Below are positions 31,801 to 60,243 of a DNA stretch of 64,000 bases, in pieces. Positions within the stretch are counted from its first letter, which is position 1; each line of letters starts with the position of its first letter. The notes under the pieces are model-generated. The model did no database searches, had not been told where the DNA came from, and worked only from the letters and a program-made list of their open reading frames with translations. The stretch is from Macrotrachela quadricornifera. Its lineage: Eukaryota > Rotifera > Eurotatoria > Philodinida > Philodinidae. The stretch lies in NCBI GenBank assembly GCA_022393335.1, contig JAJEKB010020889.1, positions 323,135-387,134 on the forward strand. Reading direction: 5' to 3'. The position numbers and the translations under genes were made by a program.

Positions 31801-34800
31801 GATAAATTGCAGGTATATAATTTCTGTATATCTGTGTGTTCATAACAACGGAAGCTTCCAACTAATTGGCTTTTTTCAGACAATAATTGGTTCGATATCT
31901 AGATATGTATGAAATAGGTTGTTCTCATGTACAGACTTCAACAGACCTAATTTTTTCAGATCGGACCGGTCGGTTGAAATTCTTAATCGAATTGGTAAAA
32001 TCGACCAGTTTAACTATAAAATTCCGCTCATGAAAAATTAGCAAGTCAAAATAAGCTAAAATTATCGTTTTTTACAGCAGATGCCATATTTTAGTTTTTT
32101 TAATGTCTGTATTTGCGTATTTACACAGTTGGAAAAGGCCAATAATTGATATAATCTCTAAAATTTAACAAAAATAGAGGTCAGACTGGTCTGCACCTTT
32201 CTTTGCTGGTCTGAAAGGTTAGATAAGACCGAGCCGGTTCCAAGTCTACTCATGTATTAATATAACAGAAGTTATTAGAAAGTCAACACATTATGGATTG
32301 ATTAGATATATACTCGATCGCACTGTACCGGTGACGACCTAATTTTTTACTACCACGGCACTGCTCTTGTTGTTATCAATGATCACAATGACGAAGCGGT
32401 GAAGTTGTACTATTGTTATGCTCAATCTGTATGATGTTAAGTGCGTTTTTGTATGATCCACTTGTCTTTTTGTTACATAAGATGATCCATTATCTAGAGG
32501 AACTCAAAGTAGAGACTAAGAAAAGATTATAAGATAGAACAAGAGTAAGAACATGTATATATGTAATATACATAATAGGATATCTTCACAAGAAAGATAC
32601 CATCTACATTCGGAAAACTGATTGATGAACGTACAATCATCTTAGAGTGATTTGATTCGAGACAGGTGATTGTTGGAAAAAGTATAAAGATTACATTAAA
32701 GTCGCGGTGGGGGCCAGACGGTCAAAAGAATGATCATATGACTTTCGAATAGTCTCATGACTTTTTTAAAGTTTTTTAATGAAAATTATAATATTTCGGA
32801 ATCCTGGAATCTTCTGTTAATTGTTGGACTTTTGGATTCCATTCGCTCCTAGGATTCTGTATGATTCTCTAGAATTCTCCAGGATTCCATTGCATTATTT
32901 TGGATTCCGGATACCAAGATTCCGCTCTTTACTCCTTGTTATGATATTAGTTGAAGTATGATCAAATAGCATACAAAACTAGAACATTCTTTTCTCTATC
33001 AGACTGTAGAAAGAATATTTCTTTAAGTTTGCTATAAGGTTTTAAAGTGTTACTCTCATTACTTTTGGAGTGCCCTAAGTATAATCGATGGACAAACACT
33101 AACGAACACTAATTAACTTCTTCAGAATGAAAATATAAATTTTTTTTGTGAATTGCAGAGCAGTCGAAAGAGTCTATACATTCCTCTGTATCATCATCGT
33201 TGAACGTTCAATGCCGAAAATGCCCCAATTGTGGCGCAACCAGCGAACCATATTGTACTTCAGATGCTCTAGACGAAAGAGCGCCAAATCTGCATGATGA
33301 TACTTTAAATGTATCTCAGTTCCAAACCTCAACTTCCAATGTCGTTAATCCTCCAACTCAGAAAGATTTTCATTCTAATCTGTATGCTTCACAAAATCTT
33401 CCCTCAACTGATCCATTGAAAAGACAATGCTCAGTACCAGAGTCACAGTCTGAGGACAAAAAACTATTTGTCTCAATAGATGATTCACGATTATCACATT
33501 CATTATCCATTGATGCAAATGCTTCTCAAATCCCTTATTTGAATTCAACATCACAAACGTCATTAAGTGCAAAATATATGAACGAAAAGTACAATCAGAC
33601 AGATCGAAAATCAAGAAAATCAATTATTTTATCGGTAATATCATTCTCATCTACGAACACTGACAACTTAACAACGGATGAAATAGGTAGGACATCATGT
33701 ATGACTAATCCTAACTGTAACAAATATGAGCTCTGTCATTTCAGACTCACCCAAATCGCTATCGTCTTCCTCACACATATTGCCAAGCTCCGATGTGGAT
33801 AAAGGAAAAGAAATATCTCATCAGTTTCCTGTTTCTATTCATTCCATTTGTGCAGAGTACAAAGAAAATGAGAGAGAGACAGAAATTAACCGCTCTCACA
33901 TTTCTCAACGAGTGCAATCTTATCCGCCTTTGTTATTGACTGATGATCAACAAATATCCCAAGCATCTTCAGCTCATTATCGGTCAGAAGAAAGTCGAGA
34001 TCGTCCTCATATGGCTTATGTACTGGATTTACCATCTAACGGTCGTACAAATAAAGAACTCGAGTCAATCATTCGTCGAATTTTAGAGGTGAACAGCCGT
34101 CTATACATAATCAATGTGAAGTATAATTCACAGTTCGATCTTGGTATCGTTTACTTCCAAAACAAGGAAGATAGAGATAGCTTAGTGAACCTCATTAAGC
34201 GAATTCCCATTGAACCTAACTCAGATCAAACAGTGTCATTGGTCGCTGAGTTTGAGTTAGTTTCCTACATAGTGGTGAAGGCAAAGGACGCCAAAAGTCT
34301 TCCGCGTTCTCAAGCCGTCCAACAACAATGGATGCAACTCTGTCCAAGCCATCATCTCTCTAAATGTAAACGATTATGTACGGGATTTCCAAATATCTTT
34401 CGAATAGTGGCCGCTAGAGTGGAAGACTGGATTCAACCTGTTTCAGCAGCAGAATTCATTGTTGAAGGACAGACGGCTACTGTTTATTTTCGAGCTGATT
34501 GTTGCTTTTTCAACGCTTTACCTCGAAATATCACCGTTACCGATTTGCGTTCGGCAATTGATGATCAACTTTCTCCGACGAAATCATCCAGAGAAAATCT
34601 TTACATTCAATTGAATGAACTAGATGGTAAAGCAGTCGTATTGACCTGTAACGAAGCTAGAAAATGGAAGTTATTCGATTCCGTAAAGCTCCGTGGACAA
34701 GTTTTAATCAAAAGAGACAAAATCACTTATCGTCTTCGATTACAATTCGTACCAACAACTACTTCGTTGTCTACTATCGAACAGTGCCAGATGTTTGCTG

Positions 34801-37800
34801 GAACTGTTCTCCGAACTATCCGAGATGGCAATGATATAGTTGTTGAACTGCTGAGTAAAGATGTGTATGACATGTGTCTCCAACGGTGTATTTTACGTAT
34901 TGATGATCATATAATCGATGTTGAAGTCAATCCAATCTCGAGTCCGAACGAAGATGATGAGATCGATGCTGTAAATTGGTATGAAACGGAGATAATGGCT
35001 GGTAAATCGAACATTGTACAGTTCATTGATCAACTCGATCATCGAATCTTTCGATTGAAATGGAATGCTCGAGCATTTTTAGAGCAATTTGATCGTTGCT
35101 CTTTGCTGCATATACCTAGTGCCAGTAATGAATGTAACCAAAAGCAGCATTTATTACGAATGACTGTGATGTTAAATACCATTGGCATTGTCAAAAGAGG
35201 GAGTTATTTCTTCCATAGTAGAGAAATCCCATTGAAAACCAATTCCTTGAACACTATTGTCTACAATCATCAATCAACATTGCAGCCTCAAATATCAATA
35301 TCATTATCTCGAGGAATTGATTATCCATACCAATCAACATCTGTTCAAGTGATCAATGAAGATTCTTTAACTATTTACGAGAAGATGATCTCTCAAGGTT
35401 ATCGTCCATTACTTTTAAATATGGCGAATGCCACTTCACCTGGTGGTGGTTATCGTCAAGGTGATGATGCTCAAGAAGAGAATCTTTTTAGACGATCGGA
35501 TTATTATCGTAGCTTGGATAAGGATCTCGATCAGAGCGAACCAACCACTCGTTATTACTGTTCATCCAACGGTGACTTAGTTCGATTGCCTGATGATCAA
35601 TCGATGTATCCTATGGATGAGTTTGGAGCAATCTATACTTCAGGATTGACCTTTTTTCGTCAACCGGAAGACAAAGGTTATGAATTGATGGAGAAGCCAG
35701 TGGTTGATGTATGTGCTCTAGCAATTGCCGCTTATCGAAAACCAATCTTGACTGATCAAAATCTCCTCAGCTCGAAATATTCCGTCGGTACACGCAAGAA
35801 AATCGAAACAATCTTTGCCATTGCTAAAAATCATCGTCATGATTGTTTGATTCTCTCTGCCTTTGGTTGTGGCGCTTTTCGAAATCCATCAAAACATGTA
35901 GCCACTATCTTCAGATCAGTCATCGAACAGTATGCTGGATTTTTCAGACAAATCTGTTTTGCCATTATCGATGATCATAATACTGATCAAGATTTGAATT
36001 CTCGTGGACATTATCAGCCTTTTCATGAGACACTCAATGGTTTGGAAGTGCAACCCATTAGGCAGACCACGGTCGGTACTATGACTGGACCTTGGCGGGT
36101 ATTGAATGAAACAGCTAATAAAGAGATCATTTTAAGTGAGGTTAAAATTTGCTCTCTACCTCCATGTCCTTATGGAGCGACTTGTAGTGACATAGAAGAT
36201 CAGAGACATTGTCCTGAATATCTTCATCCACCTTTATGTCCCTTTATTGATAGTTCGAAAGTTTGTGACAATAATGATCATATGCTTTGGTTTAGACATC
36301 CAGCCAAGCACTCAAATTATTCCGGTATTGGAAGCCAGGGTAACAGTAGTGACAACTATTTGAAACAATACAATAATACATCGGAAAATAACGATGTCAA
36401 GGCGAAGCAACAGACAAATAACTACCCAATTTGTCCATGGACGCCCTACTACTGCCGACAGCACACTTTACTAGCAGAAGCAACGGATATCCGAACATTA
36501 CCAGTTGATGTTCGAAATCATTGTCATGAATTTCGACACATCTGTCGATTTGGTCGTCAATGTGAGGAAACATCCGGTTTACATTGGGAAACGTCAATGC
36601 ACATTGCACGAGAAACATGTCCTGACGGAAGGAAATGTTCTAAAATCAATCAAGAAAATCATTTGAATTCATTTTCACATCCAGGCATAGCAGATATTCG
36701 TCGATTATGTCATTTTCTCGGTTATGAATGTCGAGATCGGCAACACCTTGACCATATTATTCGATATCGGCACCAAAGGAATTACGATCATAGCAGTGTC
36801 ATTCCATACCGTGCACTAAATAATCACATAGATTTTGTTCGAAATCAACAGGATATCATCGCCACGGTTCATGAGCACGCCGAACGCTTGAAGATAAAAA
36901 CTCCATTATCTATTTCACGGCCCATTCTCAAATGTATTCAAGGATTATCACCTATCTACCAATGTTCTAAAGTTATTTTTGAATCGATCCTCGTCCAAGG
37001 GCATGTAATGTCCAAAAATCACTTAGCACAGTTGAAAAACCAACAGGATTTAGTCCAAATTATCAAAAACAATAAACATATACGACCAATCGTCATTCAA
37101 TATCAACACCAAGCGATTGAAGATCACATCAATAAATATATTCAAGCTATTGTCAAGGCTGAACATAGTCGAAGAACTGAATATATTTCTTCCTATTTGT
37201 CCACGAATATGTCAAATGGAAGTTTTAATGATACGATTCATCAAGAAGAAAAATTTCTAAGAGATATTCTCACTCACGAACAAGTTGATAGCATCCGTCA
37301 ATGGACTATACGAATCACTGAAGCATCAGTGAATCTTTCGACAGATTCTATAACTGCAGCGGAGACAGCAGAAAAATATATCACCACCGTTTTGGGCTCA
37401 CATCTTCGTTCCAAGGAGGGAGATATTGTCTTAATATTCAAACGAGAAGTGATGTTCCATCCCGATGCAAATTTTTCTATTCAAACTGATGGACAGCTAA
37501 AACAGACTCATCAATCATCATTACATTGTTCTATATATGGTTATGATTATACAGCAATAGCTGCATTCTTTACTACAGCCAATTTGGTGAAGAAAGTCAA
37601 GGATATTGATCTGAAAACAATTTTAAAGCACATGAGTGATGCTCAATCGGATGCATTCTTTGAAGGTCATTTGCCTCAATTGATTCCTCTTGATTACATT
37701 GAAGAAGTTTACATACCACAAACTCTCTTCTATTCTCTCACATCAGCAACACAAATGTTAGCCAAAAATCTTCTGCATAATTCATTGCATATCACTTCCT

Positions 37801-39429
37801 ATGAAGGAAATCAACATCAGAAACATGTCAACGAGAAGTTGGCCCAAAAACTTATGGACTATATTAAACGACCACAGCAACAACTGCGTGGTAGCATTAT
37901 CACTTTACCACCAAGTCACTTGACAGAATATGTTACTCTTCCTTTTACAATAGAACAACTTTACGATCAATATTGTCAAAATCAAAAGCAAGATTCTTTC
38001 TCCAATGATGTCTACATTTATTGGCAATCTATGTATGGTGATATGATGATGATATTATCGAAAGAACCAATAGATTTTGCTCGAAATTCTCAGTATTTTC
38101 AGTCTCTAATATGTTATATTGCCGAAACACCGTCGTCAACAACAGGTGATTATCAGGAATCATATTCATATTTGAATGTCGGCCACCCATCACAGCATAC
38201 AAGTACTATAGATGCATGTACCCTTTTAGCATCTTCTAATACATTTTATCGCGGGTGTAACGTCGATGATTATCTGACTTATTGTCTGAAAGTGGAAAGA
38301 AATACTGGTCAAGTAACACTTTCACACTGTGGATCAAATAGTATTTATAATGATGAAGTGATCTCGCATCGATTTATAAAACCGAGCCTTGATTTGAATG
38401 AATTGAGGTACATCCAGATCAGTGCTCGTTCACAGCGAGTACCTATTCGAAATTTGATGGTGTGCTTTCGTCCATTGCTCGAATTGCATCCATCATCTAC
38501 AAAATTTTTTCATCGAACCAATATCGTCTCTAAGCATGACAAGGTTAATTCTTCAGTAGCATCGATTGACAACAAATCAACAGACGTTTTGTCAAGAGTG
38601 GCAAAAGCCATCTGTAGCGTAATTGGTTATGATCATGATCAGAAGACGTTAACTCCATGTCGCGATTCGATCAACTGCCTTCAACAAACATCCGAAAATC
38701 ACTGTAAAAGATACTCTCATCCCTGTCGATTTTCTGAACAATGCCAACTGCAGCATAAAGAACCGTATTTAACTCATGAACCACATCAAGTTGAGATGTG
38801 TACATTGGATAAATCGTGTCGCCTTGTCGACGATCCTTATCATCGGGCAGCATTTCGACATACAGGTCGTCCCGACTTCCTTATTCCATGCCGCGATCAA
38901 TCAGCCTGTCAAGATCGATTGTTAGAACATCGCATAAAATATTCGCACGGTGAAAAGGTTCATCCAAAGCCAGTGGTGGCAACTGAAAAATCACGTAAGT
39001 TCTTTTTTTATTCAACAAAATCACTTTCAATTAGTTCTATTCTTCACATTGAAAGAGACACCTTCCAAAGCATCTATATTTTCATCAGAACGCTATTCTA
39101 AAGAGCAACAGAGGATGTCTTCTAGTAAAATACAAGACGAAAGAACACCCTGTCGACATGGATCAAGATGCTGGGAGCAAAATAAACGCCAGCATAATTC
39201 AAAATATTCGCATCCATTCGATCAGAATCCTTTACGAACATCACATAGTTCTGGCTCCGCTGGCAACCAGGGAAATGATGGTATTTATCAGTCTTCTTCT
39301 CTACAATCAGAGTCATCAAAACATGGAGCTCAAGGGTTCAATTATGATCAAAGAAAACCATGTCCTTTCGGTATCGGATGTATCTATTTTGATGCTCATC
39401 ATCGATCGAAATACTTGCATTCATCGTAG
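28845..39429 (+). CDS. Giant PARG macrodomain protein with PBZ-like zinc finger arrays (paralogue A)
   Basis: Exons 28845-28961, 29245-29434, 33159-33686, 33745-38994 and ~39056-39429 join in phase to ~2152 residues; the last acceptor could also be at 39035 or 39089, all in frame. Residues 1-360 are Ser/Thr-rich and unstructured. An RRM-like segment (MAYVLDLPSNGR...) starts at ~369. The PARG macrodomain spans ~832-1018, with SPGGGYRQGDDAQEENLFRRS (GGG...QEE) and the loop SAFGCGAFRNPSKHV. Five PBZ-like fingers (C-x5-C-x6/8-H-x5-H, e.g. CPYGATC...H...LHPP) lie at ~1084-1291, then a ~600-residue conserved unrecognised domain, then six fingers from ~1916 to the end. PARG removes and PBZ fingers bind poly(ADP-ribose), pointing to a nuclear DNA-damage or stress role (inference). 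Intron 2 is 3.7 kb and holds a mobile element. Its paralogue is convergent, 358 bp downstream. Confidence 0.85.
29784..30094. mobile_element. MITE nested in the intronic element
   Basis: The arms are ~70 bp: 29784-29857 (CATTTTATTATCACTTAATAC ... GCTCTAC) and 30024-30094 (GTAGAGCTTTTTACACTGCA ... GATGATAAAATG). Each includes AAGATGCAG(C/T)GTAAAAAGCTCTAC or its complement. Total 311 bp, non-coding. Single arms or fragments of the same family are seen at 391-410, 26135-26165 and 47056-47085. Confidence 0.75.
31360..32250. repeat. Two diverged direct repeats inside the intronic element
   Basis: Copy 1 (31365-31790) and copy 2 (31945-32250) share, in order, a pyrimidine-flanked GACC(T/G)...CCAGT block, GAATTCTT(A/G)ATCG(C/A)AT(C/T)GGTAAAA, a TTTTTA...ATGCCAT/ATGTCATC segment, TATCTATATTTGTGGATTT-like words and a CGAACCGTTC/GACTGGTC block. 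A (CT)n run lies at 31161-31178. No coding signal. Confidence 0.5.
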
Positions 39430-39787
39430 AAAAGATCGCACGCCAATCATTTCATTTCTATATGACTTAATCTTGACATGTGTGCAATGTACTTTTTTTG
39501 TTAAAATAAAGTGAATGTTTCAAAGATTTCAATAAAACTTCCCAACTCTGTGTGAATGCACATAAGCACATACTTACTACGTATTTCTATAAAAAGTTTG
39601 TTTCCTATAAAACCAACCATTAAGGTTTCAAAACAGTGGGAAACCTTTCTGATTCGTCTTCTCAAAATACTTCTTCAAAAAGTATATATTTTCCAACAAA
39701 ACAAAAACACAGGTATTTTTCTGATTTATTTTTCGTTAGAAATTTTCGGGAAAAAGAATACGATGAGAAGATAGTATAGAATTCAAG
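39430..39787. other. Shared 3' region between the convergent giant genes
   Basis: A 358-bp spacer. AATAAA at 39506-39511 (in AAAATAAAGTG) and again at 39531-39536 (CAATAAAACTT) are good poly(A) signals for the plus-strand gene. For the minus-strand gene TTTATT words at 39726-39731 serve as candidates. A 72-codon frame here (39556-39774) is not believed. Confidence 0.5.
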
Positions 39788-42700
39788 TTAATTTGAAGAT
39801 GAAGTGTCTGGTACCGGCACTCGTTCACCATGTGAATACATTTTTCGATGTTGCGACGTTTTATTCCAGCAGTCTTTCTGAAAATGACAGGGGATGAAGA
39901 AATCCGCCAGTTTCGAATGACGATAAGAAGCACGATGAACAGGATCTTCCAGCTGACTACAGTTTGCGTCGTGCTGACAGTGAGGTATTTTGTGCGGCGT
40001 GTGAGTTAGATGCGGTTCATTTTGTATATTTTGGCAGAGTTCAGAATAGCGACAAGGATGTGTATATTTGCGATTGTGATCAGTATCTTCACGATGAACA
40101 CAATTGACCGATTCAGGGCACGGTTTTAAGGTAGAGGAAGAAAAAGGAGCAAGAACAGTATTGATGACTTTTGAGAATATTCCGTCTTTCTTTGGATCAG
40201 GTGGTACTAATGACACTTGACTATCTTGTGCGGCATTTGCTGTGCCTGTAGAAGTTGCACCGCTGCTCTTGAATTTAGTATCGAAAGAAGGATGTAAATC
40301 ATTAAGAGGTTCATGTCGAATAATCATATTTTTCACCGGTACTGTCCCATTTCCAGCACTGACATGTACAAAGTCCAGTTTGGTAAGATCAAGTTCACTC
40401 GCGGAAAATTCAGCCACGATCACTTCATGATCATAGAGACTATTTGCACCAGCATGAGACAGAGAGACTCGACGTTTAGCATAATCGATTTTTATACAAA
40501 ATGTCAAGTAATGATCGATATTGGCACCACGATGGAAACGACAGGAACCTTTCTTATACTTAGCTTGACTTAATATGCCTGAGTGTTTCAGCGGATGATC
40601 ATTAGTAAGATAAGAATAAGATTCATGGTAATCGGGTGAACTCGTTAATGGTACTTTAGCTACATAGCAAATTAAGCAACGAAGATTGGCTTGCTCTTGA
40701 GTGCAATCGATTGGTTCATTAGAAAGAGTAACCATCATGTCACCGTGCATAGCTTGCAAATAGATAAAAGTTATATCTGGTTGATGACGAGAGGTCGATT
40801 TTGATTTATTACGACTGTAGATTTCAACCGATTGCTTGATGGTCATTGGAAGAAGAACATGTTCGTAGAATGATGAGCCCGGTAAGGTAATTGTCATACC
40901 TTGTAATAATGAGCCTCTTTCGATATTACTTTCGATCCGTTTAATCGTTTCTTTATGTATAAAAGATTCGTAGGCTGGTCCAGTTTCATCCGAAATAGTC
41001 AATGCATAACGAAAAATTGCTCGCGCTGCTTGTTGAGCATCTGGTGACAAAGAATTGAAGACTTGTCGAGGCATATAAATATGATCAATATAGTCTAATG
41101 GAATCAATTGTGGCAGATGACTTTCAAAAACCATGTGAGAATCGACTTTTTTCCACCAATTGATGATCGTTTTCAGATCGACATCGATCGTTTCTTTATC
41201 CTTGCCCGCTGATGCCATGAGCTGAAGAGCTGCTACTAATTCATAGCCAGGAAAGGAACAGTGCAACTTTGAATGGTGAAAACTTTTGATACGTTCGTCA
41301 ACACTACCTGGATCTTGAAGCCATTCACGCCATTGGTAGCCTTTACCGCTATGAAACGAAGTGCCAGCTTGAATAGAAAAATTGGAATCAGGATGAAACA
41401 TCACTTCTTGCTTGAAAATTAGAACAATATCACCATAGTGTTGTCCAGTGTGTGGCCCTAAAGTACTGAACACATGTTTGTCTGTACCAAGAGCTTTGTC
41501 TGGACCATAACCGATACCCATCGGTACTTGACATAAATTCAATGAAGCTTGGGCAATCGCTGTAGCACACGATTTAATTGTTTCAATTTGGCCTTTATCG
41601 AGATTTTGACGTAGTATATTTTCTTTCATTTGAATAGTGTATTGATGATCGGCGCCATGGAAAGTGGGAGGTAAAGTTGGATGCACTATTCCCACTGATG
41701 CGGGATTGGCTGCTGTACTGGGATATTTGACAGGAGGATTTTTTGCAAATTCATCACTGACAATCGCGTGAACAAGTTCTTGCGCATGCTCTTCTAGAGT
41801 GGGATCGTTCAGATGCTTGAATATGTGACGAAAACGACCATGTTGAACGACAGCATTGGCCACGAAACGTGCCTCCCGTAAAAGATTCATTTGTGCACGA
41901 CTCATCAAATGATTGTGAACAAGGATTGACTCAAATATCACCTTCGAACATCGATGAATAGGCTGCAATGCTCGAATCCAGTCAGTAATATTTGAGGGAA
42001 TCATTGCTGATTTTCGCCACTTGTGAGTATCGATATAATTATTTAATATTTTGGTCATTTCGTCCTGGTTCCGTAGGAAATCGGTGCGCTTATTCAAAGT
42101 AAAATAACGTCCAATGCCGACATGATCATGATTTTGGCTATGCCGAAAGCGATGCTGATGGTCATTCTTGTGTCGATCACGGCATTGGTAACCGGAATAA
42201 TCACATAGCTCTCGAATGTCACGAATATTCGGGTGTGAAAAAGAATTTAAATGTTCTTCACTATTTATTTCCTTGCATCGATCTTTATAAGAACACATTT
42301 GCCGTGGAACATGAATAAATATCTGAGCATGTGAGTCTGATGTGTCAGCACATTGTCGTCCCAGAGGACATACATGTGCATATTTGAAAAAGTGACTACG
42401 AATCTGATGTGTGGTATTTTGTAGGTTATTCGTTTTCAATAATTGATTGTGCAATTGACAATGAAAAGGAGTGAAAGGGCACGGTGATGGAAATGGATGA
42501 TCGTAATCTTGGAGGTGTTGCTCCTCGTGAAAATTGGCACAGAAGCCTTCATGCAGACATTTTTGTCGGCAGTGACGATAGGCATGCAGATGTTCAGGTT
42601 TAGGTACCACATAATCTGGACATTTTAAGCTGTGTGGACACAGTGGTTTATGAGAGTAAGCATTCAAATGTATTGCGTTCAAGTCAGGACAAGCATCACC

Positions 42701-45700
42701 TTGAGGACAAGGTTTCGGATGTTCATATTGCTGAAGATGTTGCTCATCCTTGTTCTTACATTCACCTCCGTCCCGGCACTTAGTACGATGAATAAAAGAG
42801 AACATATGTACGTTATCATCAATATCCTTGCAACTAGCCTGATGAGGACAAACGGGAGGATGTGAATAAGATTTGCTGTGCTGAGTATCGTACAATTCAT
42901 GACACTGAGCACCATATTTACAAGGTGTTAACCCAAAAATATGTACATCACCCAGATCAAGTGGCTTATCCGATTCAACTTTGTTCAATAAGCGATAGGG
43001 CCCACTAGCCACATTGATCAATTGAAGAATTTGTGGAGTTACGGTTAAACCGTCTAATTCGTTTCGAAATGGTAGAACATTTCCTTTAGGATTCAACTGA
43101 TTCCCCGTATTGTGATCGTCAATAATGGCAAAGTGTATACTACGAAAGTAACCAGCATATTGCATAATAACTGATTTGAAGAGAGCGGCCACGTGTTCGG
43201 GAGGATTTTTGAAAGCACCACATCCAAGAGCTGAGAGAACCAAACAATCATGGTTTTGATGATAAGCAATGGCAAAGATGTTCTCGATTTTCTTGCGCAT
43301 ACCGGCTGCGAATGTGCCAGTGAGCATTTGCTTATCTAATTTTTGCTCACGATAGGCAGCCATAGCGATGGCGCATACACCGGAAACAGGCTCATTTAAA
43401 AATGCATAGCCCCGATCTTCAGAATGACGAAAGGCAGTGATACCCGATGTATACACCGCCCCAAAATCATCCATTGGATACATACCATCACCTTTGTACA
43501 GTCGTTTCAATTGACCATCAGGTCCACAATGGTATCGTTCGCTTTGATTTGATTCGTCCATTTCGATATCGAGACTAAGACAGTAGTTCGAACGACGAAA
43601 TAAGTTTTCCTCTTGTGCTCCATCTCCTCGTCGATAGCCGCCACCGGGAGATTTCTGATTGGCCATGTTGAGAAGGACTGGACGTCGACCACTAGCTGCT
43701 AACTGATAGTAAACTTCTAAACAATCACGTTCCACTACTTCCACTGTAGTTGACGAAAATTTCAGAATATCCTTCGAACTGGATACTTTCCTACCGGAAA
43801 ACAACTTCGATTGGTGATGGTATACGATAGTTGTCAATGGTTCATTACGCAGTTGAACTACTTGTTGATTCTCGAGTGTGTAGGACTTTCTCCGAATCAC
43901 ACCAATAGTATTAAGCATTACTGTCATACGTAGGAGATGTCGGATACGATTTTGATTTTTGTTCGACTGATTTGGATCATCAGCTTTTTGCTTTTGTTCA
44001 CTCCAAACTTTCGCATTCCAACTGTAACGAAGTATTCCGTGTTTATTGGCAATAAAAGGCATAATGTCCGGATCAAAGTCAAGCATACGTGTTGCATACC
44101 AATTCTCAGTCGTGATTTCTGTTCCTTCTGGATCATTTAATGCTGAGTAAGCATCAATAAAGATTCGATGCTCGCCAACCTTTACAGCGCCAATAGACAA
44201 AACATGTTCGTACAAACTTTTCTCGTTGATTTCTACAACGAGACTCTCTTCTTTGTGCTGATGCTTGACAATACCATTTTGGAAGAGGTGATGCTGAAGT
44301 ATCGATTGAAGAGGACAAGTGGATGGGACAGGATGTAGGAGGAGACGATAGGCCATTTGGACTTTTTTATGTAAAATATGAGTGCCTAGATAAAGAAACG
44401 TTTCATGATTCCACTTTCGTGCTCGTCCAGAAGCGAGAACAATGGCATTTCTAGCATCATGATGGCATTGAACGTAGAGTACTGCTGCCGTTGACGCTCC
44501 CAATCCAATTTTATTAGCAATTGCAGTAAACAAATCATCGCGCTTGACAGTCACCGGTAAGTCTTCAAAGTAACTACAATCAGCTCGAAAGTGAACGGTA
44601 GCAAAATTATTGTTTACAACAAAAGTTTCTATAGTTGATGCTTGAAGTAGATCGTTAAAGGAGGTAGAGACAATGCGAAAGATATTCGGGTAAAGAATGG
44701 AAACCGGTTCGCATATTTCTGGGCGAGCACATTTATAGACTTGCACCCAGCGTTGTAATATCTCGTCCTTAGTGGGCATATTTTTCACTGATGAATCAAA
44801 TACAATGTAGGAAACAAGTTCGAGAGTATCACTGAAAGTAATGATGGAACCGTAGGGCGGATTGAGAACAATCGATCGAATATTACAGAGAAGACGATTC
44901 TTGCTCGATTGATTCGCTACACTCAAGACACCGACACTGAATCGCGGATAACATTTGATATCCACTATAGTGAGCTGAATATCATCATCCAGCCGGTCGT
45001 GAATCATCTGCGCCAATTGTGTGTCCGTCTTGTCTGCTGGCAAGTCAGGAATGTACACTGTACACGTGTTCTGATCAGGAGGACTTGAGGCAACACTCAT
45101 TGGTATGATGGATGGCGATGAAGAAACTTTGTTTGTACTTTCTATGGAAGGTCGGGAGGTATCTACCGATGATGTGAAAGCTCTTGCAGGTAAATGAGAA
45201 GCAAGCGTTGCTGAAGAGTAATGTGGAGTAGTCTCGTTGGATGAAGAGCGGTGTTGTCGTTGAGATGAAAACGATTCTTGTGATGGTGAACGGTCTCGAA
45301 TTTTCGACTTGTCTGTAGGATGGATGGGTCGCACAGTTGGTCTCGTACCTTCGTTGCACACAGCACAGATTTTATCAGAGTCCATGTTTAGATACGTACA
45401 CTCAGTACAGAACCATCCATTCCGTAACTCAGTTTTGACGATACTTGAAGATGAAGACGAACGTGGATGTTCACATGCATCACAAACACTAACATTTGAC
45501 TTATTCCATAGAGTACATTTTCCACAAGCCCATTCATTATCATCTTCATATCTAGACGCTGAACTAGACATTGGCTTTAAAGGTTTATCAAAATCCTAAA
45601 AAAAAACTTAATAAAGTATTGGAAATCAATTTTTTTGCTTTTGTTTTTCTAGGTACCCTGTCATTTTTACCAGTTGCTTCTGTCATTCTGATTCTCTGCT

Positions 45701-45899
45701 GTTCATCTTTAATGAAAATAGAGATCAATCCCTCCAAGGACTGCGAACACAAGGGACATCTTTCATTACCCTTTTCGATGTTCTTTCGTATACAATCCAT
45801 ATGGAATCGATGATTACATTCGGTGGAGATGAGCAATGTTCTACTGAGTGGCATCAAACAGATGGCACATTGATCATCACCTTCGTTCGTCGTTGCCAT
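39788..45899 (-). CDS. Giant RING-H2 / RanBP2-finger / PARG / PBZ-like multidomain protein (paralogue B)
   Basis: Exon 1 is 45899-45657 (81 codons); a 61-bp intron (45656-45596, GT-AG, T-rich acceptor) joins it in phase to exon 2, 45595-39788, for ~2016 residues. RING-H2: C11, C14, C28, H30, H33, C36, C48, C51. Two RanBP2-type fingers (W-x-C-x2-C-x10-C-x2-C) at ~103-122 and ~142-161. RRM-like segment from ~259. PARG macrodomain ~716-908 with SPGGGYRRGDGAQEENLFRRS and SALGCGAFKNP. Nine PBZ-like fingers at ~969-1231 (first: CKYGAQC-x7-H-x5-H), one of them CPHSLKC-type with a longer loop, then a conserved unrecognised domain (~1232-1900) and four more fingers at ~1908-2001. RING would make it a ubiquitin ligase directed by ADP-ribose, as in CHFR (RING plus PBZ), here with its own eraser (inference). 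If the short intron is retained, RING alone would be made (103 residues). Confidence 0.85.
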
Positions 45900-47945: not shown

Positions 47946-48418
47946 TTCCCAAACTGTCAGACGCCGTTTGAGCCCATATTTTGCTTATGGGTAGGACATA
48001 GTGATACTTAGAAAATTCTATAAGGATTCGGAATCATGCTTTGCTCCACCAGAATTAAGACCGTTTTATTGAGTTTTCAGTCTCTGTGTCAGTTATTCAT
48101 GGAAAACTGAATTACAAGATTTTCACCTAAAATTTTGCTCACACAGATCTCAGGTCACTAGAATATGCTAAAAATTTCAGCTCAAATGAATGTACTTTTC
48201 TTAGACACCCAGTATCTCAAGGAAAGTACATTCGTTTGAGCTAAAATTTTTAGGATATTCTAATAGCCCGAAAGCCCACTTACGAGGAAAATTTCAGATA
48301 AAAACGTCGTAAGTGAGTTTTCCATGAATAACTGGTCCAGAGGCCGGAAACTTACTAAAACGGTCATAACTCTGGCTAAGTAAAATGTGGGCTCAAACGG
48401 CGTTCAACTGTTGGAAAG
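47946..48418. mobile_element. Foldback element, nearly fully palindromic
   Basis: Outer arms: ACGCCGTTTGAGCCCA (47961-47976) against TGGGCTCAAACGGCGT (48388-48403). Middle: GACCGTTTTATTGAG / AAACGGTC and TTATTCATGGAAAAC / TTTTCCATGAATAA. Centre: TCAGCTCAAATGAATGTACTT / AAGTACATTCGTTTGAGCT. Only ~30 bp at the centre are unpaired. No coding content. Confidence 0.8.
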
Positions 48419-48928
48419 ATCCTCTTGTCAAGTAATCAAACAACAACTGATCAACTATCTACACAATTGCAGTTATCACTCTCTAGTAGATTACCACGAA
48501 AAAATCGATCAGAAAAATAAAACAACATCAGCCAGCTATAATTCCTACTGTTGTCGAGGCACATCCAACTTCTCTACGATGATACTATATTCCAGCGTGT
48601 TCGTAGTGAATTGCTCGTGTCGAGCATTGCTAATATTAGCGAACTTTCGGATCCTCAATCAATCAGTAAATGATATCTTCGATCCGACGTCAAAAAATTG
48701 CCGGCAAACTTGTAAATAACATTGATCAATTGAACATTTTTATCCCAATAATAACCTTATCGAGTATTGTTCACTAGCGCGTTTGAATAGAGATGAATTC
48801 TTATTCGTAGTATATGGTTCATTTATATATCTATATATTGAAAAGTTCATTGTATTTTATTGGTCAATAATTCTCTATATTAATGTGTTACACATTATTC
48901 TTTTCATAATAATATTTAATCAATCGAT
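48419..48928. other. Upstream region of the F-box gene
   Basis: A frame at 48387-48719 overlaps the foldback arm and is judged chance. Just before the start codon, 48850-48928 is AT-rich with ATATATTG and TAATATTTAATC. Confidence 0.35.
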
Positions 48929-50887
48929 ATGAATAAAAATAATTCTTCAACATTATTCGAACAATTACCTGTTGAACTTATCCATTCAATATTTGAATAT
49001 TTATCTCCACTCGATTGGGTCAATGCATTTGAAGAATTAAATAGTCGATTTTCATCAATTATTCGTGATCATTCACTTTGTTTGCCTAATAATCGTCGAA
49101 TGAGTTTAGACGATTATGAAGAATATATTGGATACATTCTAACTGAATATTCATCACAAATTGTTTATCTTTATTTTTCTGAACATCGTGCTCCTGATGC
49201 AGTTCAATCATTTCTTTTTCAGACATATGATCAACAATATAAATTTCCAAAATTAAAAGCAATAACTATTAAAGATATTCCTCTTGATACATACAATACA
49301 TTATTATTCACGTTTCTTCCATTATTTAATTTTCAATCACTTACAATCGATATAAATGATAATCATTATCATCATTCAGATTACAATCAATGGACAGATA
49401 TTGATTTTATTGTTCCCATACTCAATTCATTTCCTAAATTATGTTCATTGTATTTAAAGATTTCACCAAAGTATGATAAAAAATATATTAATCATATCAA
49501 TACGATATCTTCTCAAATACTTCCTCATTTATATCTTCATACACTTTCAATTGATCAATGTTCACGTCAATTATTTGTGGAATTACTCAGCAAAAATTGT
49601 CTTCCAAATTTAGTTAATCTACGAATCAAGTTTCCTCAGTAAGTATCAAAGAAAAATTTTAAATCTCTATTATGTCGATGTTATTTAGTTGGAATTCGAA
49701 TGAAAATGTATTAACAATGCAATCTCATGAAATTCCCTTGAATAAAACTTGTGTACCTCAATTACGTCGAATCAAAATTGAATTACGTGCAAATGTTCAA
49801 TGGATATTAAATTATTTCGAAGAAATCTGTCGTAATGAACAACTGGAAGAATTAATCATTCAAGGTTATCTAAATTTCAATGAAAATGCTGATCTTCCAC
49901 AAGCAAATATTCTCCGACAATGGTTGATGATGTCTAAATTGAAGCAATGCAATATTCGATTAAATTTCTCTATTGTTCGCCATGGACAAAATTTCAATGA
50001 TTTTTTGAACAATTATAAGAAAGTATTTGGACAAAATTCAATTTATCAAAATCAGTACATTCTTATTCATTATCCGAATTCTATTAAAACAATTTCAATT
50101 AGTAATGAAGAAGATATCAATGATTCAATTGATAAAGTAAGAAAGAAGATTGAATTCTATATTTAATAAATATTTCATTTTTAGTTAGATATTGATGAAT
50201 CGGATTATTTGAAAGATGAATGGATAAAAACTGTACAAAATATTTCTCAATGGTATAATCTTCGAAAAATATCTATTTTTGGTGATTGTACAAAAGATGA
50301 GTAAGTGTAATATTTACTTTCATGTATATAAACAGATTAGTCAATTTCAGAATTTGTTGATGACTTTTTTTTATTATAGAAATGTAATCTGTCGAAATCT
50401 TTCTATTCTACTTCATGTTGCTCAACGAGCAGCACGTTTTTGTGAAGTTGAAGTTCAAGCAACACTTGCATTTGGTCTTGCTTTATCATATAATATTGAT
50501 CTTTGTCGTTATCTTGCTGATCATCTCGAAATTTTACGTTTTTGTGGTGAAGATCGAACAAGTTCTTTTCTTCAATTAATTGAAATCGTTGATAAAATTT
50601 ATTCACATTCATCATCTTTATCATTACCATTGAAAAAATTAACAATCTTTGTCGATGCTGATCCATCATTATGGCTTACAATTGATCATTTTCGAAAAGG
50701 ACTTCAACTAGTTTTTAATCGTTTTTCATCACTTATTCATTTTACATTATATTGTTCTCAATTAGAAAAATTTACTGATACTATGTATGATTTAACTCAA
50801 TTAATATCTGATTGGTATTCAGAAGTGAACTGTGGAAGATCATGGAGTTGGAGATCTAAATCAAATTCATTCGATCTTTGGCTCTAA
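48929..50887 (+). CDS. F-box protein (leucine-rich-repeat-like C-terminal part)
   Basis: Four exons, 48929-49638, 49689-50136, 50185-50300 and 50380-50887, with introns of 50, 48 and 79 bp, join in phase to 593 residues. Residues ~10-50 are an F-box (LFEQLPVELIHSIFEYLSPLDWVNAFEELNSRFSSII), the SKP1-binding part of SCF ubiquitin ligases. The rest is a series of ~25-30-residue Leu/Ile-rich segments (e.g. LPNLVNLRIKFP, LEELIIQGYLNF) like degenerate leucine-rich repeats that would bind substrate. Substrate unknown. The start is the first ATG of the frame and places the F-box at the N-terminus, as usual. Confidence 0.85.
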
Positions 50888-52847
50888 ATCAATTATTTTT
50901 TTATCAAATAACACAAAGACATATCTATTCTTCTTGTAATAATTCTCTCGATGATTGGTATTGTTTCTATGTTTAACTAAATTGCTTGTAATAAATCTTG
51001 TGATATATATGAAAATCTTACTAAAAAAACTAAATAATTTTATTGTGATTTTGCAGCAAAAGATTTTCAAGAATTTGTCTTATCTTTTAATAGTTTTGGT
51101 TTCACTTCTGAATTGTATTGAATATAATACTTTCAAATAATCCATGGAGTATTATCGTACTGGAAGATGAAGAATCTTCCATTGATTTCGTCATCAACAG
51201 TTCATCCTCTATTAAATGATGTAACAAAAATATAAACCAATTTTTTACTCTAAATTCGATTTTCCTCCACCTGATGTCTCGCTAAAAATCTCAGTAGATG
51301 GTCAAAATTCGAGTAATAAATTCTCTTTAGAAAACAATTCAAACACAAATCGTTAGGGTTCAATATTTTAAATCTGTGAAAATACAACTCAATAAGAGAA
51401 TTCGGATATTTCGTTCGATATAAGATCGGTCAAGATAATATATTGTCATATTTATTAACATTTGTCACTATGTTATTTCATCCTATCACTGAGTCTTGCT
51501 GGAACTGGTTATTTGAGAAAAAACGGTAGTGATGGAGAGAAATGAGCTGAGAATTCGGAGTTTATTTTCTTGGTGGATCAGAGAGATAGAAGTTGTATTA
51601 AAAGTACAACTCGAGACGTACTGATCAGGTGATCTTAGCTTTCGTTGAAATCACTTGAAATGATCATTTTTGAAGAGTATTTTATATATAATAGTAGCTT
51701 TTAAACTCGTCCTTTCAGAAAACAATCTTCCCTTTCATCTCCATGAATATCGTCACAAAATTCAGATCCAGGAAAGTGTAGATTGAAAGGTTGCCATCTT
51801 TAAATGTTTTTCACAATATTTCCATTAACTATTTATATAAAGTTTCCGCTTAAAAAAGGTACTACTTCGAAGTTCTTTTCCTTGGTATAATAAATGTTGT
51901 CTATTGTTATCAACTATTTCACATAAGTTACCATCGAATTCCTGAAAAAACTGCTTAGTCAGGCATTTCGAATTGAACTACTTTGATGAACGTTTTCTGA
52001 AAATACAATTGAATATATATCTACGATTATATTTTGAAAATATTTTTTCAGTGAAATAATTGGTAAAGTTCAAACATACATTCTCATATTGTATTTTCTT
52101 ACTATCTTATACATAATAAATGCTAATTTTACGAAACTCGTTAAATTTTAGATGACAAATGAGATCAGTTGCCCTTTTAGACAAAGAGAAAGTAGCGAAA
52201 CTAACGTTTCTAAAACTCTCAAGAAATAAATTCTGCGTAATGGTGATTAAAACAAGCAGATCAATTGATCACTAATGTAAAGCGTTTTTTATATAAATAA
52301 ACCCGATCATAAACACTCATGCTTACTAAAAAACCGAAAGAAATGCGTAACAATTGAAGAAAATAATGATGACAAGGCCAAAAGCAAGAACGATAATCAT
52401 ATTTTGCTTCGATCTTATTATTATATAATTAGTAAAATGTTATTACATAGTTACCTCATTCAATCGCATACTTGTAGATGTCATTTCTTTTCCTTTCCCA
52501 CGGAGAACAGTTTCAACATTAATACTGCGATCAACCACAGCTTTATTCAAGCTATCACAGAAAGAATTTTAAATCACCATTTTTCACAGTTTGGTCTTTC
52601 ACAAAATCATCCTTTGAAATCACAATCATTGAACATGTGTCAAAATGACTACTACCCATGTAACCGATAATGGAAAAATGATTTATTATTTTCCATTATT
52701 TTGTCTGATTTCAATACATGTCGATGCATTTCTTCAAAAAAATGACAAAAGATCTAATAATTTATTACCTAGCAATATATTATAATGCATTAGAATAGAA
52801 TTTCGTGCAAATGGTAAATAATTTAAGAAGATCCAATGCATTGTAAT
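50888..52847. other. Gene-poor AT-rich DNA
   Basis: No gene seen; frames up to 88 codons (e.g. 52404-52670) are T/A-rich without features. CAATTGA/TCAATTG and similar hexamers are common but form no clear element. Confidence 0.4.
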
Positions 52848-55800
52848 CAGGGTTGCCAATCCTCCTGATTTGATCAGAAGTCTCTTGATTTTCAAATCTT
52901 TTCCTGATAAAAAATCTCCCAATTTCTGATTCTCAATTTTTCGATGGCTTCGTTTTCCGCGATATCTTGAGTCAGTAAAAGAAAAGGGTAGAAGAAAAAG
53001 AGCAGCGTCAAACATGGAAGGTAATAATCTCCTGGCTTATCTTCATGGCAGTAAAAAATGTACCTGATGCATAAAAATTAGCTCGGTATCTTTTTACTGT
53101 ATCTGTCTTTAATGTGTGTTGAGAGTGAATTTTCATTTATTTGAAATGTTTATAAAGCAATAATAGAAATCAAATCACAAAAAATTTTGTTGATACAGAA
53201 TTGAGAATTAGAATGAATACTCATTCCGATTGTACAAAGTTTCACAATTATTTCTTGAATGATCACGAATTGTCAACGCAAAGTTTTCTTGTCAGAAAAA
53301 TACAGGCATGTTACAAAAGTCATGCCGACAGAATTGTAATCATTTTGTATGTCATATTCGATTTATTTTGCTTTTTAGTTCGTGTCATATCCTTATAAGA
53401 TATTTTTACCTATTTTATTTATATCGGTAAATAAACAGATGCAAAGATACTAGTAGAATAAAGCACACATAATTACAGAAATGTCTCAAAATCCTGAAAA
53501 AATTCAAAAAGAACTGGAAAGGAAAATTTTCGAATACAAGAATTATATGACGAATATCTCAAAAGAATAAATAACGAGCATTTTTCGATGGTCATTCTAA
53601 AATAGTAGGCAAAATATATTGGCATCCCACCAACATTCGGTAAAAAAAAGATAATTTTTAATAAAAAGGAAAAGAAAAAGATACATAGTTTTTGTTTGAA
53701 GGAAACTAAAATATATTAACACAATAGTATTATAAATTCGACAAAACTCGTATGTCATTAGTATAGGTTGAATGTGACGTGGAAGAGTAAAAAAAGAAAC
53801 AAAGCTTCTAGTTGTCTATAGAGATTATTGTGAGACTGCTTATGTACGCATTAGAACACAGTCACTATTAAAGAAAGGTCTATTCTAGTTACGTAGTGTT
53901 TGACAATGATATTACTCTATCTGACTAAGTAGGCATACAGAAAAAGAAATGATCAGAATTAATTAAACATCGTTTTGGCTTTTTGTTTCTTCTTTCAAAT
54001 AGCTGTGTTTGTGAAAATGGTATTTTCTCGTTTTTTTTCAAATTTCCTTAATTCTTCCATGATTTTGGTCATTTTTCGCAATTCAGTTTCAATTTTTCAT
54101 TTCGCAATGTAAATTAATATATTGGTTGCAAGAACACTCTTACAACGGGTTTGTAAGAAATCGTTTAATCCTATACTATCGAAAACGGTTGATTTTTCAC
54201 GGCGAAAAAAGGTCATCTTCTTGCATTCCATAGAAAACGACATATATATATGTCGTAGATTGTACGATCCCCTGCTTTTTGATTATTGGGACGCACCTGT
54301 TTTCTGCTTTTTCATCCCATCATGTCCGATTTCTTCCAAGTAGCATTTAGCCGTTGTCAATATTGATCTATGTCAAACAGACACACTCGTAATCGGAGAG
54401 ATACAGCATTTCATATGACTCAGTATTGTAATTAAATAATTCCTTAGTCTTGTGCGCAGAAATACGATCGTTTATGGACAAATAAAACTCGTCAATGGTT
54501 TTCGTTTTTCTCTGTATTTCTTTGTATACGATTATATTTCTCTATGTACCATCTGAAGATTTACGATCCTCCAAAATGTAATCGTATACTGAGAACACAG
54601 GAAAATAGGAATTGCTTCATTTTAACAGTAAATCAATCGCATAAGGTAAGCTAGCATTATACCACAGAAACTGTAATCAATTCAGCAATTTTGAAGGATC
54701 AAATATTGCCGGACACAATATACAAGATTTTATCGGTATTTTATATAGAGAAATCTTCAACTTTTGACATCACCTGTCGCTGGCTCTTGCCGAAGAAATT
54801 CTATCCGATCCGGGAGGATTTTAGGGCATATTTAGCCAACGTGGAAACTTTTTCTCACTTTGACGCGTGGGTTACGCTACGAGTTATAGATCCCTTGTTA
54901 GATTCATACCGTAGGCCTCCTTTATAGTCGAGAAAAATGATCAAGAAAAGTGAGAGCGAGATAATGATTTTACATGTCGATTTAAACCAGGAAAACTGAT
55001 GAAATCCATGAGAGAATGACAAGTTTACATCTGAAATATAATTGAATAACGAACGTGACCATTGTAAAATTATATGTTTTAACCTCAATTTCACAGCTGG
55101 AGTGGCAAGCGTATCAGTTTATGTTATGGTGTCCTTTTGTATGATGTGGTAACATTAATCAATATATTCACACATGTTTTTGCCAACATCCTATTTTTTC
55201 GTAAAAAAAGGAATTTTTAAGAAGAAGAGGAAAAATAGGTGAAGTGGAATGTTAGAGCATAGAGAAATCTCACTTCATTCGTGCTCATCCGATTTCGATG
55301 GATTTCCAGCACATCGCTCGGTAGTAGATCTGTTTGAATTTTTACCTAACAAGCCCTAGGGTGATCCAATCGGGACCGATTGAAAAATCAGCGATTTTTT
55401 AGAGAAAGTCGAATCTGAATTCGCCGTAAGAAACATGTCCAAGTATTATGAAATCGCTCGGTTCGTAGTTTTTCAGCGTCCTTTCAATCTGTTTTTTGAC
55501 TATTTCAGCGGCAGAAATAATGGACCTGCAATTGTATTACGAACAAATTAGAAAGGTATACAAACATAAATTTATTCAAGATTTTTTGTTTCAAGATTTT
55601 CAATTTGAGATAACGAGACATATTCATGACTACCTGTCTCTTTTCTTTATTTCACTTGTGAGATAATTATTTCCCTATTGATTTAATAGAGAAAAGTCAC
55701 AAGAGTTCGTAAACTAACAGTGACAATACTGCCTCCACAAGAGAATGCTGTCTAGCACTTTTGTTTAACCTGATTTCAAAAAATTTACTGATTTTTTTCA

Positions 55801-55893
55801 GATTTTTTTAAAAGTCTTCTGAATCTCTCCTGATTCTATGGAAAACTCCCTGATTTTTCTCCTGATTTCTAAAATTTGAATTCGGCAACCGTG
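52848..55893. mobile_element. Candidate ~3-kb hAT-like element
   Basis: CAGGGTTGCC at 52848 and GGCAACCGTG ending at 55893 are inverted with one mismatch; such CAGGGTTGCC ends are typical of hAT elements. The flanking 8-mers (ATTGTAAT and ATGGTGAT) agree at 6 of 8 positions, compatible with an old target duplication. Both ends share direct TCCTGATTT words. The interior has no recognisable transposase, only frames of 60-93 codons with no family match. Confidence 0.45.
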
Positions 55894-56589
55894 ATGGTGA
55901 TACATTACCAAAGAACAAGTTTAAGTTTTCTGTAACTCAAGATTGAACTTCACTGCATTATAACGTCACTGTTACAAATAATTTTTCAATGATCGATAAT
56001 TCATTATTAGAAAAGAAAGAGAGATAGATAAAGTGAAGGTCAAAGAATCTCGAAATAAGTAAGAACTAATTAATTAGTACACTTAATTAGAACTAAACTA
56101 ATTAAGAATGTTATCAACTACTTTTTGAACCATATTTGGCCATGGCATCTAACGACTGTGCAAGACTTCCTCGCATATAATAATCAGAAGTCTTCGAGTT
56201 TTTCTCGATCTTGATATCTGTGACTCTTAGAGGTGTTCTCGAACATAATAGTCACAACTTTTTTAATACTCTGCAATCACAATCACTGTGTATGTTACTT
56301 GTAGAGGCCATCTTGTGCGCAGTACTGACAATTTTTCAAGTCTTTGCAACCATACTATCTAAAACCTTTAAAAATTGTCTCAGGCATAATACCTATAACT
56401 TTTCGAGCCCTATTACACTATGATGTCCAGGTCCTTTGGATGGTTTTTCACACGTCATATTCGTTACGTTGTCAGCCTTATTTGAGAGGTGGACCATTTC
56501 CCTACTACAGAGAGAAATTGTTCCACTTCTAGAAGAAATACTTTAAACTAAAAAAGTCAAGAAGAATCTCTTTTATGAACTAAAAGTTA
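55894..56589. other. Intergenic, no gene seen
   Basis: Contains an AATTAATTAG/CTAATTAA-type AT palindrome near 56065-56105; otherwise nothing to report. Confidence 0.35.
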
Positions 56590-56990
56590 AGGCGTTTTTT
56601 TAAGCAGAAATTGTTTATCTATATCTCTCCTTATAAAGAGTAAGAGACATAAAACAGAGAGTAATCGATAACTTTTATTTTATTTTTATTTTTATCTTAA
56701 GAGGCGTTTTAAGTAGAAATGGAGTTTCTCCAGCAAACATGGTCATTTTTTTAACAGAAATTGTCGATCCATATCCATACCTATAAGGAGAAATGCAAAT
56801 AAAGTAAAGCGAAATCGATATTTTTATATTATAATTTTTTCCATCTTAAGAGGAGTTTTAAGTAGAAATGGATTTTTCTAACAGAGACGGTGATATTTTA
56901 GGCAGAAATTGTTTAGTCAGATCTCCATTTATACGGAGAAATGAAAATAAAATAGATTAAGCAGAAATTGAGAATTTTTTTGGTTAGGAC
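56590..56990. repeat. ~148-bp tandem repeat, about 2.7 copies
   Basis: The block (A)GGCGTTTTAAG(C/T)AGAAATxG followed by ACAGAAATTGT and then CTxxTxTACxxAG recurs at about 56591, 56703/56751 and 56851/56896. The matching anchors are 151 and 145 bp apart. AT-rich, non-coding. Confidence 0.65.
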
Positions 56991-57315
56991 AGTATTCAGC
57001 AGAAATCAGCTTTTCTCTGTGGATATGTATTAAATATGAAGTGAAATTGTTTATACAATTGTCCGTGAATAAACTGAAATGCAGGAGATTGAGTGTTTGG
57101 TTTTAGTGGATTTGTAGATGATTGTTTAAAAGGGATATTTTGTACGATATAGTTTGTTTCTGTTATGTATGTTTAAGTACGCTAATGGAATGAGCAGAGT
57201 TAGTCATGTCTTATCATTTGAATCTAGATACAATAAATAACGGACTTATCCATTGTGCAGCTAAAAAGTAACAAGAAAGAAAATTTTATTTACTCTATTT
57301 TAAACATAGAACTAT

Positions 57316-57642
57316 TGTTAGAAAATAATGCTCGCTGTTAGAGGATGATGTATGCCATCCTCTTTTTCTTCCTTTCTGTACACCATGTATCTTCTTTCGT
57401 TCTCTTCTCTGCACATATGTTTACATATGTTTCTGTTCTTTCCACATATGTTAGCTGCCATTTCATCATCTTCTTCTTTGTGAGGCTGGTCACCGTTGAT
57501 CAGCTTCACCTTTGTTCGATCTAGTATATAATGCTGATTTCTTTTGCAATAAATCATCATTCTTTCGTTCTTTCACCTTCATCTAGCCTCTAGCTGGACA
57601 GTCCTCATCGGACTCGTTCACACTAGCATCATATCTATTACA
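57316..57642 (+). mobile_element. Possible solo LTR (Copia-like)
   Basis: Starts TGTTAGAAAATAATG and ends TCTATTACA; inside are TATATAATG (57525-57533) as TATA-like and AATAAATC (57547-57554) as a poly(A)-like signal, in the order expected of an LTR. The following TGATATGAG resembles a primer-binding-site start. However, the 5-bp flanks (ACTAT and TGATA) do not match, and no second copy or reverse transcriptase is in the window. A 80-codon minus frame across it is not believed. Confidence 0.3.
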
Positions 57643-60217: not shown

Positions 60218-60243
60218 TTCAAGGTGATATTCTGCATTTTTTA

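What the first reader, a model, noticed from the sequence alone, without database searches (positions are those of the whole stretch)
39788..45899. A single protein that joins RING-H2, RanBP2 fingers, a PARG eraser and 13 PBZ-like ADP-ribose reader fingers
Seen: an in-phase 61-bp intron links a RING-H2 exon to a 1935-codon exon with two W-x-C-x2-C-x10-C-x2-C fingers, a GGG...QEE macrodomain, and nine plus four C-x5-C...H-x5-H fingers. Known: GGG-x-QEE is the catalytic signature of bacterial-type PARG; PBZ fingers (APLF, CHFR) bind poly(ADP-ribose); CHFR pairs RING with PBZ. Inference: this is a ubiquitin ligase recruited by ADP-ribose chains that can also remove them. I know of no described protein with this combination.
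Basis: partly seen in the sequence, partly recalled or inferred. Interest (0 to 1): 0.88.

Follow-up and report, generated by a model that had tools for sequence, protein, structure and literature searches.

The report
Multi-tool ADP-ribose and ubiquitin protein family
One animal gene, from a large family in the same genome, appears to join a ubiquitin-ligase finger, RNA-binding-like folds, an enzyme that removes ADP-ribose, thirteen zinc fingers of the ADP-ribose-binding type and a domain shaped like enzymes that attach ADP-ribose; only part of this combination has been described before.

The parts
45657..45899 (-). Exon 1, 81 codons; RING-H2 finger at 45747-45869
   Evidence: zf-C3HC4_2 39.6 bits, cut-off 27; zf-RING_2 38.8, cut-off 27.3
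45596..45656 (-). Proposed 61-nt phase-0 intron (alternative 45559-45670, 112 nt, also in frame)
   Evidence: a phase-0 junction after the RING exon in 7 other RING-bearing loci
39788..45595 (-). Exon 2, 1935 codons plus stop
45356..45532 (-). Two RanBP2-type zinc fingers (45473-45532, 45356-45415)
   Evidence: Pattern; Pfam 19.5 bits, below cut-off 27; paralogue L016 35.6 bits, above; RanBP exons of L023 and L024 gave no Pfam family at 0.01
44144..45082 (-). Tandem RRM-like folds, probably four
43037..43939 (-). Bacterial-type PARG macrodomain; GGG-x7-QEE at 43607-43645
42140..42922 (-). Nine PBZ-type C-C-H-H fingers
   Evidence: Pfam PBZ 13.6 bits, below cut-off 22.7
40913..42118 (-). Helical region plus ART-like fold (core about 40991-41659)
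41117..41125 (-). Glu1572-x-His1574 in the most conserved 15-residue stretch of the C half
   Evidence: Glu 17 of 17, His 16 of 17 in A2; a motif search found E-x-H or E-x-R in 23 of 24 family copies read, the other being largely masked
40313..40870 (-). Conserved beta-rich region, fold not assigned
   Evidence: 26 of 186 columns invariant; weak, inconsistent fold matches
39830..40120 (-). Four PBZ-type fingers
   Evidence: Pfam PBZ 26.9 bits, cut-off 22.7, E 4.7e-6; profile of the C half matches only APLF in PDB, E 0.025
39725..39730 (-). AATAAA downstream of the stop
33726..39101 (+). Tail-to-tail paralogue: RRM-like region by alignment, PARG, PBZ-type fingers, ART-like; no RING seen upstream
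38938..39429 (+). Open frame that seems to hold the paralogue's 3' coding exon(s), with two more PBZ-type fingers; splice sites not determined
   Evidence: no Pfam hit at 0.001

Best explanation
The gene encodes a 2016-residue ADP-ribose and ubiquitin signalling protein: RING-H2 E3, two RanBP2-type fingers, tandem RRM-like folds, a bacterial-type PARG with intact signature, a nine-finger PBZ-type array, a helical plus ART-like domain, and four more PBZ-type fingers. It belongs to a large, diversified family in its own genome. Shown by sequence: the domains with profile hits and their order, the PARG signature, the recurrence of RING and RanBP upstream in paralogues. Modelled: RRM-like and ART-like folds. 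Inferred: the RRM-like part binds RNA or protein; the ART-like part attaches ADP-ribose to targets or to the protein itself; PARG trims or removes it; the RING ubiquitinates targets held by the fingers. It would thus work like PARP14 with its partner complex PARP9/DTX3L, in a single chain and with non-homologous parts. The size and diversity of the family suggest a defence or stress role, but that is a guess.
For: PARG; GGG-x-QEE in 21 of 22 family loci (the other, L018, reads QEG). RING upstream 8 of 21, RanBP 11 of 21, against 0 of 21 antisense and 0 of 21 downstream. Pfam confirms RING in 5 of 5 paralogue RING exons scanned (those of L024 and L025 were not scanned), with five RINGs in L026 (E 4.8e-35) and four in L022 (1.4e-32). 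RING occurs in both main parts of the family tree. ART-like: top 11 listed entries, from 980 chains aligned, are all ART-fold enzymes, next row 7.3; Glu-x-His in the most conserved stretch; CopC, one of the matches, needs Glu325, and a Glu325/His327 double mutant is used as a control, the same spacing (PMC9239266). By coordinates, 25 of 26 PARG loci in frames of 700 aa or more also have the ART-like domain 2-5 kb downstream on the same strand. Constraint: dN/dS 0.23, 0.49, 0.34 in three near pairs; 0.39 in the RING exon of L025/L026 (no significance test). PARP14/DTX3L analogy: PMC11251020 passages.
Against: No transcript was seen and the exact splice is not fixed; a RING-skipping junction scored higher on a crude scale. 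RING was not seen within about 3 kb in 13 of 21 loci. ART-like rests on one model and on structural Z alone: Foldseek gave no match under E 0.001, and no ART family matched by sequence. No residue-level superposition was possible. The fingers lack APLF's ADP-ribose residues, and the central array is under Pfam's cut-off. RRMs have no Pfam support.
Confidence: 0.6

Rival explanations
1. One reading: the ART-like region is a dead or purely structural domain, and the protein clears poly(ADP-ribose) at damaged DNA and ubiquitinates bound proteins, like CHFR with a PARG.
For: PARG certain; PBZ-type fingers; PARG with PBZ repeats known in Adineta vaga; paralogues carry an extra 3' exon with near-canonical PBZ fingers, e.g. 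four in L011.
Against: The best-conserved stretch of the C half is the Glu-x-His stretch, Glu 17 of 17, unlike a dead enzyme; no such 3' PBZ exon follows the target (frames read), and its fingers lack the ADP-ribose residues.
Confidence: 0.22
2. Two transcripts: a small RING protein from exon 1 and a separate 1927-aa protein starting at the ATG at 45571.
For: Exon 2 has its own ATG at 45571; exon 1 is a complete 103-aa ORF if unspliced; the preferred intron scores poorly.
Against: RING lies upstream on the same strand in 7 other family loci with an in-frame phase-0 junction, and in 0 of 21 on other sides.
Confidence: 0.1
3. Only the enzyme parts matter: the fingers and RING are decaying leftovers in a rapidly turning-over family.
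For: Finger number and sequence vary between paralogues; one RING-derived repeat in L022 has lost its ligands (translation); RING not seen in 13 of 21 loci.
Against: The zinc ligands of the target's RING and 13 fingers are intact; RING exon dN/dS 0.39 in L025/L026.
Confidence: 0.08

Closest known systems
Adineta vaga PARG with PBZ repeats (PMC4245714 section 3.2 and Fig. 2 legend, citing its reference 18, which I recall as Slade et al. 2011 and did not see)
   Same: PARG with several PBZ fingers in a rotifer; probably the same family
   Different: No RING, RanBP2, RRM or ART-like part is mentioned for it in the section read; the figure and the sequence were not seen
PARP14 with PARP9/DTX3L
   Same: RRMs, hydrolytic macrodomain, ART domain, ADP-ribose reader modules and a RING E3 working together (PMC11251020 passages)
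   Different: Several chains, not one; a different macrodomain type (recalled); WWE and KH domains, not PBZ; the target matched no PARP profile
CHFR, APLF
   Same: PBZ-type fingers; CHFR also has a RING (recalled)
   Different: No PARG or ART-like part (recalled); APLF's ADP-ribose residues are absent from the target's fingers
Bacterial PARG (Thermomonospora curvata, Deinococcus radiodurans)
   Different: Single-domain enzymes
SopF / OspC3 / CopC and DarT ART-fold enzymes
   Different: 6-14% identity; no sequence-level match; no residue-level superposition available

Membership tests
Bacterial-type PARG (TIGR02452 / PF10021) | Profile match above curated cut-off | tested here: met
   108 vs 50 bits; 74.7 vs 23.5
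Bacterial-type PARG (TIGR02452 / PF10021) | GGG-x6-8-QEE signature and PARG fold | tested here: met
Bacterial-type PARG (TIGR02452 / PF10021) | Hydrolysis of poly(ADP-ribose) | not testable with these tools
   Needs an assay
RING-H2 E3 | C3H2C3 ligands and profile match | tested here: met
RING-H2 E3 | E2 binding and ubiquitin transfer | not testable with these tools
   Needs an assay
PBZ zinc finger (PF10283) | C-x5-C..H-x5-H and profile match | tested here: inconclusive
   Last four fingers 26.9 bits, above 22.7; first nine 13.6, below
PBZ zinc finger (PF10283) | Aromatic after Cys2 plus Arg that contact ADP-ribose (APLF Y386/R387) | tested here: not met
   0 of 13 fingers here; aromatic plus Arg or Lys in 1 of 159 in the family set, a Tyr-Lys; roles from PMC6264785 Fig. 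12 legend
RanBP2-type zinc finger (PF00641) | W-x-C-x2-C-x10-C-x2-C and profile match | tested here: inconclusive
   Two patterns; 19.5 bits, below cut-off 27, E 6e-4
ART-fold superfamily | ART fold | tested here: met
ART-fold superfamily | Catalytic Glu | tested here: inconclusive
   Invariant Glu1572 in a predicted strand; no residue-level superposition
PARP family (PF00644) | PARP catalytic profile match | tested here: not met
   No PF00644 listed at E up to 1 for exon 2 or up to 10 for 15 ART-region members
OspC/CopC ADP-riboxanases | Essential Glu325 and Asp172/Asp230 of CopC, calmodulin dependence | tested here: inconclusive
RRM | RRM fold / profile | tested here: inconclusive
   Fold yes; Pfam no

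The most novel reading that the evidence does not exclude
One polypeptide that writes, reads and erases ADP-ribose and also ligates ubiquitin, with a writer domain of the SopF/OspC/CopC/DarT structural group that no Pfam or NCBIfam model recognised here, spread over at least 29 loci (some near-identical pairs) of an animal genome, one member with five tandem RINGs.
Probability: 0.35. Interest if true: 0.88.

Novelty: new variant of a known kind. Interest (0 to 1): 0.74.

Why it matters
PARP14 and PARP9/DTX3L show that ADP-ribose writing, reading, erasing and ubiquitin ligation cooperate, but across several proteins. A single chain with all four, from non-homologous parts, would be an independent solution that can be tested domain by domain. 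An animal ART-like domain nearest in fold to SopF, OspC and DarT would also bear on where those enzymes come from, and the family's size makes it a candidate for the stress or defence biology of its host.

Tried and rejected
Considered and rejected: (1) RING as a chance neighbour: 8 of 21 against 0 of 21 and 0 of 21. (2) A 6290-aa family member in the list: its long frame is an artefact of masked letters. (3) Prokaryotic or viral sequence relatives of the ART-like domain: 42 and 71 pattern matches, 0 confirmed by tblastn. (4) Foldseek against viral models: one row under E 0.001, a phage protein annotated NAT_SF, TM 0.13. (5) Foldseek against PDB does not itself support the ART call; only the VIA second look does. 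(6) The beta-rich region 40313-40870: lectin, GID4 and viral 2A-protein matches are weak and inconsistent.

Not done because the tool did not complete: genome-wide search for canonical PARP (PF00644), canonical PARG (PF05028), DarT (PF14487) and PF01555. The large protein database could not be queried, so orthologues in other rotifers are untested. Statements that something is not in print rest on searches of open-licence PMC papers; one search listed 20 of 50 papers, and of those I opened only PMC4245714 and PMC11251020.

Rows dropped: 22 family loci were in hand at first (L009-L028 plus the two window genes); L018 is left out of the counts because its signature reads QEG; L010, L018, L028 are left out of A1 and the tree; L010, L018, L023, L024, L028 out of A2; also L012 and L014 out of A3; L010, L012, L014 (near copies) and L018 out of the finger count. 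L029 and L030 came later. Counts include near-identical pairs unless said. The RanBP exons of L023 and L024 gave no Pfam family. Papers: PMC4245714 passages and section 14 (its 3.2); PMC9239266 passages and section 12; PMC6264785, PMC10665377, PMC12220480, PMC11598138, PMC11251020 passages only; all others search listings.
Full report
Observation. The window's minus strand holds an 81-codon exon (45657-45899) with a RING-H2 finger, a 61-nt GT..AG intron and a 1935-codon exon (39788-45595); joined they read 2016 aa without an inner stop. Profiles confirm RING and PARG strongly, the last four fingers as PBZ, and RanBP2 and the first nine fingers only below Pfam's cut-offs. Against PDB sequences the PARG region finds bacterial PARGs (E 4e-13), and the fingers find APLF weakly (E 0.11; 0.025 with a profile of the C half, where APLF is the only molecule matched).

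The gene is one of a family. The genome that contains the window (450 Mb, 5695 contigs, unnamed) has 37 PF10021 places, 26 of them in frames of 700 aa or more by my count of the list. I read 20 further loci, then two more, beside the two genes in the window. Paralogues are 35-48% identical to the target over the compared halves; three sets are pairs at 96-97%. together, by coordinates: 25 of the 26 carry the ART-like domain downstream on the same strand; the exception is a locus whose frame is largely masked. Four more loci (on C314, C315, C3800, C3972) have the ART-like domain without a PARG listed on that contig; the two of these that I read (L029, L030) also have PBZ-type fingers. That makes 29 loci, a lower bound that includes near-identical pairs. 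The gene beside the target, 33726-39101 on the plus strand, is a tail-to-tail paralogue. The target has no near copy: its best match elsewhere is 58% identical in the ART-like domain.

The RING link is real. RING patterns lie upstream on the same strand in 8 of 21 loci (target, L016, L020, L022-L026) and RanBP patterns in 11 of 21, against 0 of 21 on the opposite strand and 0 of 21 downstream on both strands; window 1-29500 and 48000-64000 has none. Pfam confirms the 5 paralogue RING exons scanned: L016, L020, L022 (four), L023, L026 (five). A phase-0 in-frame junction after the RING exon exists in all 8; in 7 it is the best-scored junction that leaves the RING whole, in the target it is not. 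On the family tree (19 rows, midpoint root for drawing only) the RING label needs two changes and occurs in both main parts; the fork that places the target is weakly supported. RING not seen within about 3 kb is not proof of absence.

Doubts about reading PAR. In APLF, Tyr at Cys1+2 and Tyr-Arg after Cys2 hold ADP-ribose (roles: PMC6264785 Fig. 12 legend; positions). Of the target's 13 fingers 5 have the first aromatic, 1 an aromatic after Cys2, 0 the pair; in the family set 86, 12 and 1 (a Tyr-Lys) of 159. Several paralogues (L011, L012, L013, L014, L021, L025) have a further 3' frame with near-canonical fingers, four in L011, in which the Tyr is often kept but Asp stands for Arg; the neighbour gene has two more fingers in such a frame. 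No such frame follows the target. The target's array may thus bind something else, or bind weakly through number.

Constraint. Near pairs show dN/dS 0.23, 0.49 and 0.34; L025/L026 0.48 overall and 0.39 in the RING exon (small counts, no test). Invariant columns: PARG 65 of 301 and RRM-like 11 of 309 (19 rows); ART-like 15 of 223, helical 12 of 137, beta-rich 26 of 186, last fingers 0 of 64 (17 rows).

What is known. PARG with several PBZ repeats in Adineta vaga was reported (PMC4245714), so that pair is not new. PARP14 joins RRMs, a hydrolytic macrodomain and an ART domain, and works with PARP9 and the RING protein DTX3L (PMC11251020 passages). Searches for rotifer or bdelloid with poly ADP-ribose, PARG, PBZ or ADP-ribosyltransferase gave no paper whose listing or passages I saw mention RING or ART parts in such a protein. 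The family therefore looks like a separate, single-chain version of a known logic.

Mechanism. Most likely (0.6): the ART-like domain modifies targets or the protein itself, PARG limits the mark, fingers and RRM-like folds position it, and RING adds ubiquitin. Shown: sequence, profile domains, recurrence, conservation. Modelled: RRM-like and ART-like folds. Inferred: every activity and the order of steps.

Noticed in passing
window 2197-3400 (+): A third PARG gene, apparently single-domain, PF10021 151 bits in its first open frame with GGG-x-QEE; two more loci (C3508, C3902) score similarly. All three score far higher on PF10021 than the giant family.
   Followed up: partly
L022 514-1521, L025 3-884, L026 7795-8829 (-): Tandem RING arrays in one exon: four by Pfam in L022 plus a repeat that has lost its ligands, five in L026; the L025 array runs off the fetched stretch. 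Such arrays are unusual to my knowledge (recalled).
   Followed up: partly
L011 8350-8850, L012 8355-8789: 3' frame with near-canonical PBZ fingers (four in L011) repeated with highly similar spacers.
   Followed up: partly
G000 contigs C314, C315, C3800, C3972: Loci with the ART-like domain but no PARG hit on the same contig; C315 and C3800, read as L029 and L030, also have PBZ-type fingers.
   Followed up: partly
window 4488-5407 (+): Transposase-like frames (recalled as mariner-like) separated by a stop; Pfam DUF4817 just under cut-off in the first piece.
   Followed up: no
window 40313-40870 (-): Beta-rich region of unknown fold with 26 of 186 columns invariant, a larger share than the ART-like part.
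   Followed up: partly
window 48920-50887 (+): F-box-type gene beside the cluster (F-box 21.1 bits, cut-off 20.5, in the first frame).
   Followed up: no
window 7048-8088 (+): Kelch-repeat open frame (Kelch_1 in six stretches).
   Followed up: no
window 11675-13022 (-): Exons that look like adenosylhomocysteinase (recognised by eye, no profile run).
   Followed up: no
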